Made by a program: the position numbers and the translations under genes. A stretch of 64,000 nt of DNA from Ceratodon purpureus (Eukaryota > Streptophyta > Bryopsida > Pseudoditrichales > Ditrichaceae): NCBI GenBank assembly GCA_014871385.1, contig CM026433.1:3298474-3362473 (forward strand), in the 5' to 3' direction. Positions within the stretch are counted from its first letter, which is position 1, and each line of letters starts with the position of its first letter. Shown piece by piece: positions 14,253-29,417 of this stretch. A model generated the notes under the pieces. It was not told the origin of the DNA. It saw only the letters and a program-made list of their open reading frames with translations, and searched no databases.

Positions 14253-15911
14253 ATGGCAGTTATGTTCGCCGGTGTTTTACCCAGGCCATTTGAATGAGAC
14301 TCACTGAATCTGCATGTGCTGTGCAATCTGTACACGGTTTGAAAATCTGAATTCCCAACCCCATTCGGAATAACGTGATGATGTCCTGCGTTGGAGGAAC
14401 TTGATCCCTGTTTAGGATACTCATGTTCTCTCGTTACTATTATTCTTTTTGAGATTATTTTAGAGAAGTCTTACTGTAGAGAAGTCAGTCTTTCTCTTCT
14501 TATTTATCCAGGTAAGGTCAATATACTTACAGAAACGAAGAGAATCTCTTGTCTCCAAAGGAGACTAGTGTGACGTGAATAAAGTGTCTCGTCGTTCCAC
14601 CCCTAAACCAAAGGAATGGAGGTATAGAACTACTTCCATTTCAGAGTACACACTTTAATAGCCAGTGACCAGAAGTGGTCGATTTCTAAGTCATTGTTGG
14701 TTAAAGAGAGTGTTTATTTCATACATAGTCCAGATTTGGATCCTACTCGGCTTGTTTGAGTACAGGTGTCGTAGGTAGCGACTTGGCATTGTTAAGCGAG
14801 TAATGGCATTCATGAATTGAATTGTACCAACCAATAGTTGACCACATGCTTGACGAAAAATAGTGCTACCATTTGCTTAAATAAATAAAGTAGCTTTAGC
14901 TACTATATTTTATTTATTTAATTAAACTAATTTATACAATTGAGATAGAGGTTGCTAATTTTCTAGATTTCTTTTGTGGGACAATATGTAGCATATTGGA
15001 TAACAATGGTGTTAATGTTTTTAGAAGTATTTTCTTATAGTGGCTTTAGGTGTTTTGAATTTTTTTTGAATTAGTTTCATTGATGAGATGTGTATAGCTC
15101 CTCTAACCCTCCCTTGATGACTGTAGGCGGCAATGTTTTCTATTCAATGGTCTATATTTGTTGACTTTTAAGTCAAGGATTTCTGGGGAAAGTTTATAAT
15201 TACATATGTGAATTCAATGAATTTTATAGTGAAATTTTGTTAAACATTTGTGGGTGGTTCATTTTTGTAATTTAACCTTTTGACACAAAGTATATATGGT
15301 CTACATTTAGCGTGATAATGACATCTTCACTCACCGCATATACAAGGAAGTAATTTATCAAGGTTGGTATTTTCTTATGGATTGTTGTTTAAAGTGTCAT
15401 AAGGAAAAAAGAAAATTTTCTTAATGCTTATTTTCAATAATAACATCAAAAGCTAAGTTGAAATTCTTACTTGTTGCATATCTCAAAATTGGACAAAATT
15501 TATTTCTATACCATAGTTCATCCATTTTTAAATTCAAAATAATTCCTTTGGAAGTAAAAACAATTGCGTTATAAATTCCAAAATAATACTGCTACAGAAA
15601 GTAATTTCAAATTTTCCCCATTCTTACCTTTAATCTAGATTCACATCAGTGAATGTCAACAATTGATGAATTCACATTAATTTGAAACATTGGAAATTGA
15701 TCTTTTTGAGGTTACTGTTATCTTCATTTAGAAGCATATCATTATTTTAATATTATTAAATTCAAATTGGCATCAAATTAAGAATACTTATCTGATCCGA
15801 TTTTCTTCGTTGTATATTATTATACATTACAAAATTAAACTCTGAAGTTTTTAAAATTTATATTTCACATGTCATATTTTATAACTAATATTTTGTAAAA
15901 TGCATCAATAA
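14253..15911. other. Intergenic; left edge of the AT-rich island
   Basis: No coding sequence is recognised. Composition changes near 14880 from ordinary to very AT-rich, at a near-perfect palindrome (14877-14921). From there to the WDR92 gene the DNA is mostly AT. Confidence 0.6.
14877..14921. repeat. Near-perfect palindrome at the AT-island edge
   Basis: Two arms (TTAAATAAATAAA with TAGCT, then AGCTA with TTTATTTATTTAA) pair across a centre near 14895. Such a sequence could fold into a cruciform or hairpin. Confidence 0.8.
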
Positions 15912-17012
15912 CTAGGTTTTATTCAATTTTGTTACAACTACAGTTCGGATGCATTGATCAAAAGATCCACATACAGCCAATCCTAACTTATCAGGGCTCC
16001 AACTCCAGCAACAAATAGGTTGTGGAGCCAATTTTCCATTATTGAGTAGTTCTACTTTGCCTACATTACCATACTCACGATTTTCATGATCTTTACTTAT
16101 TCGTTGATCAGGATAGTGATACTTATATAAAGAAACAGAACCATCACCTCCAAGCGTAACAAAAAGCTCACGATTTTGCGGGACATGTTTCACACCCCAA
16201 ACAGTGGTACCATGCTTCAATTTCTCCTGGAGCGTTGCATAGCCTTTCTCCGGATGGTATGTGCGGAGATCGTAAAGATGAAGTTTTGATTCCAATGTTG
16301 TACAAACAAACTTATTCATTTTAATGTCTTTGCGGTCAAAATCTATTCCGCATATTCCATTTTTTAATGATGTCTCCCACCGTACTTTGCCCATGCGAAG
16401 ATCAAACATTTTAACATCACCATTGTCATAGCCTGCTAATACACATCGTTCTTCATCATTGTATGAGTTTCCAAAAGCCACGCACCAACAGTCTCGGGGA
16501 GTTGCTTCAAGGCCGTTTTTTTTCTTTTTTGATTTTGTTGGTTCAAAACTCATCACTGGATCACTATGCTTCCGTTGGTCCCAAATTCGAACACGACCAT
16601 CACGTCCTCCAGTAGCAATCTCCGGAGCACCATATCCAATATTTAAGCCACCACATCCATCCATACAATTAATAATAGTATCATGTGCTTTTACATGCCA
16701 TAGCGGCATACTCATGCGTTCCAAATCCCAAAGCCATAAAGTTCCTTTAAAATCACCGGTTGCAAGATGTCTCTCTACCAAGTTAGATGCTCCAAAAGTT
16801 CCACATTTGAAAGTGTGGTGTTTCTCAGATTGTTTTAATTTTTTTATTTTTGGTCCTTCTAATTCATATATTTGCATTATTCCAGTACTTCTTGCACTAC
16901 CACCTAATACTACAAACCGTGCACTACATGGAATCCATAGTGTTTCATATACAGTAATGTTTAATGATTCAAGTACATGTTGCAAAATTTGAGGCTGATT
17001 TTTGGCATCCAT
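15912..17012 (-). CDS. WDR92: WDR92 (Monad/DNAAF10) WD40 protein, 366 aa, intronless
   Basis: WDR92 is a cytoplasmic WD40 protein that works with the R2TP/prefoldin-like co-chaperone in preassembly of axonemal dyneins. The ORF of 366 residues is close to the length of animal WDR92 (about 357). It carries family wording throughout: WIPCSARFVVLGG, KCGTFGASNL, ATGDFKG, INCMDGCGGLNIGYGAPE, TGGRDGRVRIWD, RDCWCVAFGNSYN, CVLAGYDNGDVKMFDLR, FDRKDIKMNK, PQNRELFVTLGGDGS and the C-terminal VTKLNK. Seven blades are expected. The gene is a single exon with strongly AT-ending codons, unlike the PDF1B, BTB and ubiquitin genes here. It lies about 0.8 kb downstream of, and in the same sense as, the LRR gene. 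In plants this family is associated with lineages that have motile sperm. The start ATG at 17012 is clear. Confidence 0.93.
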   Translation of the reverse strand: MDAKNQPQILQHVLESLNITVYETLWIPCSARFVVLGGSARSTGIMQIYELEGPKIKKLKQSEKHHTFKCGTFGASNLVERHLATGDFKGTLWLWDLERMSMPLWHVKAHDTIINCMDGCGGLNIGYGAPEIATGGRDGRVRIWDQRKHSDPVMSFEPTKSKKKKNGLEATPRDCWCVAFGNSYNDEERCVLAGYDNGDVKMFDLRMGKVRWETSLKNGICGIDFDRKDIKMNKFVCTTLESKLHLYDLRTYHPEKGYATLQEKLKHGTTVWGVKHVPQNRELFVTLGGDGSVSLYKYHYPDQRISKDHENREYGNVGKVELLNNGKLAPQPICCWSWSPDKLGLAVCGSFDQCIRTVVVTKLNKT

Positions 17013-27599: not shown

Positions 27600-28190
27600 C
27601 CACATCACCACAATTTGAAAGTGTCATTTTCATATCATTTTAACATTAAAATGATAAGTTGTCAACCCATCTATTTTTCACATATTGAGCTATTATTAGC
27701 TTAATGTTATTTTTACACATAATTTAATGATATCAAGTTTGTAAAATGTCAAATTAATATTCATTTTATGTTGTCTTGATATCATTTTGGTACATGTTAT
27801 TTTGATATTATTTTTTATGTCAATTTAACCATTGTCAAGTTCATGTCATATTGGTGTCTTCTTGATATTATTTTAACTTATGTTATTTTGATGTTATACT
27901 TATGTCAATGCAATGTCAATAAAATTTTACTTTAATATAATTTCGTTACATGTCATTGTAGTATCATTTTGATCTCAACTTAATTTCATTTTCATTATAA
28001 TCATGTTCATATACTTTTTGTGCCATACTATCACTATTTTATCAAATGTCATTTTCATGTCATTTTGGTCCTATCTTGATATTGTATTGGTATTACTTTT
28101 ATGTCATTTTGACTATTGTTATTTAATTTTGTTTTTATGTCATTTGAACACACAAGTACCAAGATAATATCATTTTCATATGTATAAGAA
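27600..28190. repeat. Low-complexity ATGTCATTTTGATAT-type repeat
   Basis: About 0.6 kb of irregular tandem-like repetition of ATGTCATTTTGATAT and variants (ATATCATTTT, GTCATTTTGA), strongly strand-biased for T. No coding potential. Confidence 0.65.
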
Positions 28191-29417
28191 TAACATTTAG
28201 CTAATATAAATTAAATATCTAAAGAATAAAAGGGTTAACAACTTGTCATTTGAATGATAAGTTGATATCAAAAGGACACTTTCAAACTCAAATACAATGG
28301 AAAAAATGTACAACCGATTTCCAATATCAAAATTTGATGGACTTCTGTTGCTATCAATTATATGACAAACACATAAAAGAAAGGCCTAGGCATCTTATGA
28401 TCAAATATACTCATTTTAGCAATATCTCTTTAAGTATGTGACGTACATGCTGCGTTTAAGGCATACATATGAAGCTCAAAATTGGAGCAATATGCGTGAA
28501 GAATCTTGTTGCTAATAATCTTGTAGCTTTGCCTTAAAGTATCCAATTACACCACAAAACAGTTAAAGCATTTTATTTACAACATTACCGGATTATATAT
28601 TCAGACCGAGTTAGAAACCATAGCTATTAAGTGAAATAAGCCACAAACTTCATCCAACACAGTTTTTACTTGCACTTACTCCACTAGTTTGGCTAACGCA
28701 TCAACCTGCTTCCCTACTTAGAAAACTCAAGACTCTGAAAAGTTGAGATGGATGTAAGAGAAGTGATGAGTGACTGCATAGAGAGTTCTATAAGGAGCTA
28801 TTTCTGTCCATTTTCGACACTCCCTATGCGTACTGGTAGGAAGTGTGAACAACCTCAATGTGGCCCTCGTATAATGAGGTAGTAACACCTCAAACCGAAA
28901 GAATAAGGGAATTGATAATCAAGGAGTGCAAAGAGCATGAAGTGAAACAATGAATGTCTTAGCAAATTGGAGACAAAGTATTGGTTCTTGGAATCAAAAT
29001 TTTTCGAACACATGTGCAATTTTACACGAATTTTTGAAGTATGGAGGTTGTCGACACCTAATCACAAATGTAGACTTACACAAAAAAAGGAGAAGAAATA
29101 CCTCGACAAAACTTGTCAATGCTTCCATCTCATTAGTCTTAGTGAAATTGTGGTCAAGTTTAGGTTCATTTCCAATCACTTTTGAGGCGAAATTATAGGA
29201 GTCAAAATAAGGTACTTGTCGATTTAAGGTGTTCCTACCTTATACGTCAGTTCACACAATAGCGGAAGCTAGTCGAGTGAGGGAAGGAAACAAACAAATA
29301 GCAATTGAGGGATTGGGTTCTCAAATATGGAGGGTCCGCCTTCTCAATATTGAAACGATCAGGATGTCAACAAGGCGCATCCGGTTCTCAATCGGGAGAC
29401 CCAGTCCAGGGCGGGGG
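28191..29417. other. Right edge of the AT-rich island and ubiquitin gene upstream region
   Basis: No recognisable gene. Composition rises from very AT-rich to ordinary near 29200. The last about 100 bp before the telo-box is GC-rich promoter or 5' UTR of the ubiquitin-L40 gene. Confidence 0.5.

What the first reader, a model, noticed from the sequence alone, without database searches (positions are those of the whole stretch)
14880..29200. Sharply bounded AT-rich island with two intact genes of probable flagellar function
About 14 kb of DNA is far richer in AT than the flanks, in coding codons, introns and spacers alike. It holds WDR92 and an LRRC46-like gene next to each other on one strand, plus Tc1/mariner and Harbinger remnants of the same composition. 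Both genes are intact with clean phases. This could be a different isochore, a formerly sex-linked or sperm-specific segment, DNA transferred from an AT-rich flagellate, or an assembly join.
Basis: partly seen in the sequence, partly recalled or inferred. Interest (0 to 1): 0.75.

Follow-up and report, generated by a model that had tools for sequence, protein, structure and literature searches.

The report
AT-rich DNA around moss sperm genes
A 14-kb AT-rich stretch of a moss chromosome with two genes of the swimming-sperm tail is the plant's own DNA, and most other sperm genes tested in that genome also sit in AT-rich DNA that looks as if it had lost methylated cytosines, while the motor and DNA-repair genes used as controls do not.

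Summary
GC is 0.302 from 14871 to 29210 against 0.421 and 0.416 outside. A complete single-exon WDR92 gene and a five-exon LRR gene lie on the minus strand; the right half is mainly old DNA transposons. The genome fits the moss Ceratodon purpureus; the window is on a 16.5-Mb chromosome, not the 110.5-Mb one I take for the sex chromosome. Transfer, contamination, assembly join and sex linkage are unsupported: such DNA is common (29 of 193 sampled 1-kb bins below 0.33) and a transposon in the island has a relative about 120 kb away. Unexpectedly, AT-rich setting goes with sperm function. Of 16 flagellar or gamete-fusion loci chosen by protein family, 13 are AT-rich, including all 9 dynein heavy chain loci found; 0 of 28 kinesin and MutS loci are. 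RSP4/6, one RSP3 copy and a DRC-like gene are exceptions; outside dynein it is 4 of 7. This DNA is poor in CG and, less strongly at genes, CWG; old transposon copies differ by C/T mainly at CG and CHG. I infer long silencing by methylation. Expression and methylation were not tested.

The parts
14871..29210 (.). AT-rich island, GC 0.302; CpG o/e about 0.46 and CHG o/e about 0.55 against 0.70 and 1.11-1.12 outside
   Evidence: segmentation and context counts, (context figures computed on 14880-29250)
15912..17012 (-). WDR92 (DNAAF10, dynein arm preassembly factor) coding region with stop, one exon, 366 codons, GC3 0.26, single copy in the genome
17798..19944 (-). Five-exon leucine-rich-repeat gene, 330 aa, GC3 0.25, introns 0.15-0.21 GC; an axonemal LRR protein is likely, LRRC46 orthology not shown
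   Evidence: gene model; LRR matches (DRC3 and FAP246 among weaker hits)
20638..21368 (.). Small element with 31-bp terminal inverted repeats (94 percent)
   Evidence: pair I4
21981..25264 (+). Old mariner-like element: about 216-bp inverted ends (81 percent alike) around broken transposase pieces at 23659-24555
23061..23485 (.). Small element with 31-bp inverted repeats nested in the former; a relative (76-86 percent) lies in L002 (C13, 3.20 Mb)
25278..27589 (+). Old broken Harbinger element; relative in L002 at 69-76 percent identity, opposite orientation
27614..28286 (.). Element-like stretch with 130-bp inverted arms (78 percent)
   Evidence: pair I2
29518..29811 (+). First part of a ubiquitin-ribosomal protein L40 gene just outside the right edge; shows the return to GC-rich gene DNA
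   Evidence: GC 0.52-0.61 in 29300-29899

Best explanation
The island is native moss DNA and one piece of a dispersed AT-rich compartment that takes up about 15 to 26 percent of the sampled bins. In this compartment cytosines in CG and CHG have been lost by deamination of 5-methylcytosine over a long time (shown as a sequence signature; methylation itself is inferred). Old DNA transposons decay there. Genes needed only in sperm (dynein heavy chains, WDR92, an LRR gene, IFT46, HAP2 and others) mostly lie in it and have AT-shifted surroundings and often AT-shifted codons. The proposed cause: moss plants are haploid and long-lived, germ cells arise late from vegetative cells, and sperm genes are shut, probably methylated or heterochromatic, in that whole lineage; they therefore gain C-to-T changes that genes active in vegetative cells escape. 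Purifying selection keeps the proteins intact. That sperm genes are silent and methylated in vegetative Ceratodon is inferred, not shown.
For: Two-boundary segmentation. 13 of 16 flagellar or gamete-fusion loci below GC 0.375 against 0 of 28 kinesin and MutS loci (Fisher p 1e-8, loci of one family not independent), and against 50 of 193 sampled 1-kb bins. All 9 dynein heavy chain loci found are AT-rich; on the right flank none overlaps the kinesin range, on the left flank one does (0.400). HAP2, a gamete fusogen and not flagellar, is AT-rich (0.27). Spaced samples around two dynein genes are AT-rich over 20 kb or more and on C13 change to GC 0.68 within 1.5 kb. In AT-rich DNA CG is depleted against GC and CWG against GWC, while GC, GWC and CWWG are near or above expectation, also in non-ORF sequence: CWG/GWC 0.55 in the island, 0.74 in random AT DNA, 0.82 at AT-rich sperm loci with one locus per gene, against 1.21-1.40 in normal DNA. 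The island's Harbinger and small nested element against their relatives: C/T differences at 14 of 18 CG and 18 of 22 CHG against 147 of 356 CHH sites (p 3e-6). P. patens and Marchantia have CG, CHG and CHH methylation; in Marchantia gene bodies are poorly methylated in the vegetative plant and heavily in antherozoids (passages of PMC8566409 and PMC5784723).
Against: Three of 16 loci are not AT-rich: RSP4/6 (0.50), the C1 copy of RSP3 (0.43), a DRC-like gene (0.39). Outside the dynein family it is 4 of 7, not significant against random bins (p 0.08). GC3 of three dynein genes is near normal (0.40-0.45). The CWG signal at the sperm loci is weaker than first counted: searches counted four dynein genes twice through overlapping loci and left out the exceptions; with one locus per gene CWG/GWC in AT bins is 0.93 instead of 0.88, and over all bins of all 16 loci 1.16. 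Slices differ in size and exon content between families. Kinesin controls were the 20 best-scoring distinct loci and could include kinesin 2 or 9, the sperm types, which I did not sort out; of 3 more picked for stop-rich frames 1 was AT-rich. MSH4-like, probably silent in vegetative cells too, is GC-normal (one gene, named by my own reading). The KNOX control found nothing. No expression, methylation or second genome was examined. In Marchantia gene methylation rises in sperm itself, which would fit another timing than I propose.
Confidence: 0.45

Rival explanations
1. Ordinary: AT-rich is simply the ground state of non-coding and transposon-derived DNA in this genome; two genes fell into it, and the dynein result reflects long, intron-rich, weakly expressed genes in general rather than sperm genes.
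For: 15 to 26 percent of sampled bins are AT-rich; of 19 ORFs with AT-rich flanks in the samples I scanned 12, and the 2 with a Pfam match have themselves normal GC, the other 10 have none; outside dynein only 4 of 7 loci are AT-rich.
Against: Kinesins and MutS genes, also long and intron-rich, gave 0 of 28; the short single-exon WDR92 and the HAP2 and IFT46 exons are AT-rich too.
Confidence: 0.28
2. Lack of GC-biased gene conversion: crossovers in moss spore mother cells start in open genes; sperm genes are closed there, receive no conversion and drift to AT.
For: Sharp edges; MSH4-like, a meiosis gene, is GC-normal; the GC rise occurs at active genes such as ubiquitin-L40.
Against: Conversion does not predict loss of CG and CWG while GWC and CWWG stay normal, nor the CG and CHG excess of C/T differences between transposon copies. 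The weak CWG signal at sperm loci leaves room for it beside methylation.
Confidence: 0.14
3. A functional domain: AT-rich DNA itself helps keep sperm genes shut in vegetative cells and open in spermatids, so the composition is selected.
For: In flowering plants H2B.8 gathers unexpressed AT-rich chromatin in sperm (abstract and passages of PMC9668745).
Against: H2B.8 avoids transcribed genes and is a flowering-plant case; three sperm-type loci here lie outside AT-rich DNA.
Confidence: 0.07
4. Foreign DNA, contamination or assembly join.
For: Sharp edges and odd composition.
Against: Diverged transposons shared with other parts of the genome, similar DNA at many places, GT-AG introns, WDR92 found only here.
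Confidence: 0.03
5. Formerly sex-linked segment moved to an autosome.
For: Three dynein loci are on the 110.5-Mb chromosome.
Against: The one 10-kb sample of that chromosome is GC 0.44 (L016), and six dynein loci in AT-rich DNA lie on other chromosomes.
Confidence: 0.03

Closest known systems
Isochores and GC3-bimodal gene classes (vertebrates, grasses)
   Same: Genes grouped by base composition shared between codons, introns and flanks; methylation and biased conversion are among the debated causes (passages of PMC2895627)
   Different: Here patches of about 14 kb to over 20 kb, tied to sperm function, and it is presumably narrowly used genes that are AT-rich; in grasses the high-GC3 genes have the more variable expression
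Methylation-driven C-to-T decay of plant transposons
   Same: Loss of CG and CHG, C/T differences between old copies
   Different: Here a similar but weaker signature surrounds intact, conserved genes
AT-rich silent chromatin gathered by H2B.8 in flowering-plant sperm (PMC9668745)
   Same: Links AT-rich, unexpressed DNA with sperm nuclei
   Different: There it is about compaction of silent DNA in sperm; here genes needed in sperm lie in AT-rich DNA of a moss
WDR92 / DNAAF10
   Same: Full-length match to human WDR92; Chlamydomonas wdr92 mutants have short immotile cilia (PMC11020789 passages)
   Different: AT-rich codons and no intron in the coding part

Membership tests
WDR92 (DNAAF10) | Full-length WD-repeat match to a known WDR92 | tested here: met
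   3i2n, residues 3-366 of the 367-aa query, E 2.5e-139
WDR92 (DNAAF10) | Required for dynein arm assembly | not testable with these tools
   needs a knock-out
LRRC46 | Leucine-rich repeats | tested here: met
   LRR_4 just over and LRR_8 just under the cut-off; many LRR chains incl. DRC3 and FAP246
LRRC46 | Orthology to LRRC46 rather than another LRR protein | tested here: inconclusive
   no LRRC46 chain among the 60 shown of 90 PDB matches; no eukaryote protein set to build a tree
Isochore (classical) | Homogeneous composition over hundreds of kb (definition recalled) | tested here: not met
   14.3 kb here
Methylation-decayed DNA | Loss of CG and CHG with C-to-T differences in those contexts | tested here: met
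   island and random AT DNA; at sperm loci CG clear, CWG weaker
Methylation-decayed DNA | Cytosine methylation present today | not testable with these tools
   no bisulfite data
Horizontally transferred island | Composition foreign to the host genome | tested here: not met
   similar DNA common
Horizontally transferred island | Gene trees that disagree with the species tree | not testable with these tools
   no eukaryote sequences beyond PDB
Sperm-gene compartment (proposed) | Flagellar and gamete genes enriched in AT-rich DNA | tested here: met
   13 of 16 against 0 of 28, with three exceptions; 4 of 7 outside dynein
Sperm-gene compartment (proposed) | Other genes silent in the vegetative plant are not in it | tested here: inconclusive
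   one MSH4-like gene GC-normal; KNOX search empty

The most novel reading that the evidence does not exclude
In this moss most of the male germ-cell program is physically set apart in an AT-rich, CG- and CHG-poor compartment, so base composition of a gene records in which part of the life cycle it has been kept silent. This would let one read life-stage silencing history from bare sequence and predict unknown sperm genes.
Probability: 0.4. Interest if true: 0.72.

Novelty: new variant of a known kind. Interest (0 to 1): 0.5.

Why it matters
If it holds genome-wide, it ties base composition of genes to where in a haploid-dominant life cycle they are shut, in a plant whose germ cells arise late from vegetative cells. 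It would give a sequence-only predictor of sperm genes and a test between methylation-driven mutation and biased gene conversion as causes of compositional patches. It also warns annotators that AT-rich islands with flagellar genes in moss assemblies need not be contamination.

Tried and rejected
Transfer or contamination and assembly join: rejected on common similar DNA and shared transposons. Sex linkage: no support. One big mobile element carrying both genes: the clear inverted ends belong to separate elements right of 20.6 kb; one weak pair (I7, 28 bases, 79 percent, 14907-14934 and 20104-20131) does flank both genes, but the best such match in 12 Markov resamples of the same stretch is 20-23 of 28 against 22 observed, so it is chance. 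Structured RNA: no Rfam family in the window at gathering score; no tRNA. KNOX genes as a sporophyte-only control: the search rang nowhere, also not in control genomes, so it says nothing. A 523-aa ORF beside another AT-rich stretch (L020) had no Pfam or PDB match. One search failed because locus files are pooled; repeated. In one search the GC3 values of minus-strand dynein exons were read on the wrong strand; one search replaces them. The first LRR gene model had a wrong donor in exon 3; one search replaces it. In one search the mean GC of two random non-ORF classes is too low because an N run was counted; one search gives 0.407 for the class of 0.36 and over, with the same ratios. The context counts at sperm loci counted overlapping dynein loci twice; one search replaces them. 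Structure prediction was not used: family assignments did not need it. Literature: in the listings of ten searches I saw no paper stating that bryophyte sperm or flagellar genes lie in AT-rich DNA. Listings were capped, most subscription papers are not held, and the Ceratodon genome paper did not come up, so this is weak evidence of novelty.
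Full report
What the window is. The window is G000:C13:3298474-3362473 in a genome of 362.5 Mb; C6 is 110.5 Mb, C13 16.5 Mb. A review states that Ceratodon purpureus has a 360-Mb genome with U and V chromosomes each over 100 Mb (passages of PMC8000587) and another lists R40 at 358 Mb (passage of PMC13120521). I therefore take it for Ceratodon purpureus, a moss with swimming sperm; that it is the male R40 with a V of 110.5 Mb is from recall.

The island. Segmentation finds two change points, 14,871 and 29,210, GC 0.421, 0.302, 0.416. 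From 15.9 to 17.0 kb, minus strand, lies WDR92 in one exon, the only match in the genome. From 17.8 to 19.9 kb, same strand, lies a five-exon LRR gene of 330 codons with four GT-AG introns of 0.15-0.21 GC. GC3 is 0.26 and 0.25. ORFs of 130 aa or more outside the island in the window have GC3 0.32-0.72, and 73 such ORFs in 20 other 10-kb samples have 0.34-0.78 (long ORFs are easier to find in GC-rich DNA, which biases this). Right of 20.6 kb is mainly a nest of old DNA elements: a mariner-like one with about 216-bp inverted ends (21981-25264), a Harbinger relative (25278-27589) and small inverted-repeat elements.

Is the island special? I sampled 20 stretches of 10 kb: 8 around the window on C13 and 12 at round coordinates on eleven contigs, C13 among them (one is mostly N). 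Of 193 usable 1-kb bins 29 are below GC 0.33 and 50 below 0.375. Of 19 ORFs of 80 aa or more with AT-rich flanks I scanned 12 against Pfam: 2 matched (a DUF7950 protein and a kinase, themselves of GC 0.50 and 0.45), 10 did not. So AT-rich patches are common, and the two recognised genes seen beside them in the samples are not AT-rich themselves.

Do other sperm genes lie in such DNA? I searched the genome with Pfam families. Dynein heavy chain (PF03028): 13 matches at 9 loci on 7 contigs; all 9 loci are AT-rich, mean GC of about 3.2 kb 0.255-0.368. One of these, C6:105.05 Mb, has stops in frame and may be a fragment. HAP2-GCS1, 0.273; IFT46, 0.236; TPH, 0.348 (one slice 0.29, one 0.40; match just over its cut-off); RSP3 on C3, 0.299. 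Not AT-rich: RSP4/6, 0.499; RSP3 on C1, 0.427; a NYD-SP28 (DRC) gene, 0.391. In sum 13 of 16; outside dynein 4 of 7; without C6, 10 of 13. A partial extra IFT46-like copy 10 kb away on C11 (0.266) is left out of the count. WDR92 and the LRR gene gave the idea and are not counted.

Controls. Kinesin (PF00225, 167 matches, not all listed): for 20 distinct loci in order of score, leaving out apparent near-copies and further exons of the same gene, 1 kb beside the match has GC 0.398-0.548. MutS (PF00488): all 8 loci found, 0.413-0.468, among them a gene that I read as MSH4, a meiosis gene. None of 28 is below 0.375; Fisher p 1e-8 against 13 of 16, with the caution that dynein loci are one family. 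Three further kinesins were picked because their matched frames held stops: one, on C5, is AT-rich (0.273) and its motor piece is nearest to kinesin-3 chains (KIF13B, KIF1A). The P. patens kinesin survey could not assign moss kinesins to family 3 and names kinesins 2 and 9 as the sperm ones (passages of PMC3472504), so the meaning of this one is open; I did not sort out whether kinesin 2 or 9 is among the 20. Slices differ in length and exon share between families, which is a weakness.

Size and edges elsewhere. Half-kb samples 2-4 kb apart around the dynein gene at C13:8.145 Mb have GC 0.25-0.35 from 8,128 to 8,150.5 kb and 0.68 at 8,152 kb; around that at C3:16.44 Mb they have 0.21-0.34 from 16,426 to 16,450 kb and 0.39 at 16,454 kb. 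So these AT-rich settings too reach 20 kb or more, and the C13 one has a sharp edge.

Codons. GC3: IFT46 0.22, TPH 0.23, HAP2 0.25, RSP3-C3 0.33, dynein 0.27-0.45, against MutS 0.43, kinesin pieces 0.49, RSP4/6 0.58, RSP3-C1 0.62, DRC-like 0.41 (39 to 1243 codons each). Three dynein genes (C3, C9, C4: 0.40-0.45) have near-normal codons in AT-rich surroundings.

Mechanism. In AT-rich 500-bp bins CG is depleted against GC (ratio 0.43-0.50 against 0.66-0.76 in normal DNA) and CWG against GWC (0.75 in random AT DNA, 0.62 in the island, against 1.35-1.39), while GC, GWC and CWWG are near expectation or above. At AT-rich sperm loci, one locus per gene, the ratios are 0.49 and 0.93 (one search gave 0.50 and 0.88 with four dynein genes counted twice). 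With ORFs of 60 aa or more masked, CWG/GWC is 0.55 in the island, 0.74 in random AT DNA, 0.82 at AT-rich sperm loci, against 1.21 in random normal DNA, 1.26 at the controls and 1.40 in the window flanks. Over all 16 sperm loci, exceptions included, it is 0.98 masked and 1.16 unmasked. So the CG signal at sperm loci is clear and the CWG signal is there but weaker than in transposon DNA. Between the island's Harbinger and small nested element and their relatives about 120 kb away, C/T (or G/A) differences stand at 14 of 18 CG, 18 of 22 CHG and 147 of 356 CHH sites with shared context. This is what deamination of methylated cytosine in CG and CHG leaves. Loss of biased gene conversion alone would not choose those contexts, but could add to it at genes. 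Which cells carried the methylation is unknown. In Marchantia the vegetative plant has low and antherozoids have high gene-body methylation (passages of PMC5784723), which leaves open whether the mutations arise in vegetative cells, as I propose, or in the male germ line.

What is not shown. No expression or methylation data were available; no second moss genome; no gene trees. The sample of sperm genes is small and more than half is one family. The claim is an association in one genome with three clear exceptions.

Verdict. The island is real and native. By itself it is an ordinary member of a common AT-rich compartment. The surplus of sperm genes in that compartment is the part worth following.

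Noticed in passing
L026, L029, L033 (C6: 105.18, 18.24, 105.05 Mb) and L028 (C5: 18.48 Mb): Three dynein heavy chain loci lie on the 110.5-Mb chromosome taken for the sex chromosome; by eye the C6:18.24 exon pieces are close relatives of those at C5:18.48, and C6:105.05 has stops in frame.
   Followed up: partly
L089 (C5: 16.3817-16.3822 Mb): A kinesin-3-like motor exon in AT-rich DNA (GC 0.273), although the P. patens survey could not assign moss kinesins to family 3; possibly a sperm kinesin.
   Followed up: partly
L070 (C3) and L071 (C1): Two RSP3 copies differ sharply in setting: GC 0.30 with GC3 0.33 against GC 0.43 with GC3 0.62; a natural pair for testing what sets composition.
   Followed up: no
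window 1858-4678 and 50707-53652: Two copies of the same long-ORF set in opposite orientation (by eye), probably of a transposon family.
   Followed up: no
window 41395-42855 (-) and 45835-47328 (+): Two related ORFs of 487 and 498 codons facing apart (by eye), without a Pfam match.
   Followed up: no
window 31636-31812: A 90-bp tandem repeat, two copies, inside an 895-codon ORF with a PGG domain.
   Followed up: no
window 61152-63166: ORFs with DUF4216 and DUF4218, by recall typical of CACTA transposons.
   Followed up: no
window 35000-40000: A second, milder AT-rich stretch (GC 0.356, CpG o/e 0.47, CHG o/e 0.82).
   Followed up: no
window 14877-14921: An imperfect palindrome (arms alike but for a 5-base insert, by eye) sits at the left edge of the island.
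   Followed up: no
L020 5186-6754 (+): A 523-codon ORF, GC3 0.34, beside another AT-rich stretch; no Pfam or PDB match.
   Followed up: partly
window 25614-25838: A degenerate 25-bp tandem array within the Harbinger stretch, just right of the mariner-like element.
   Followed up: no
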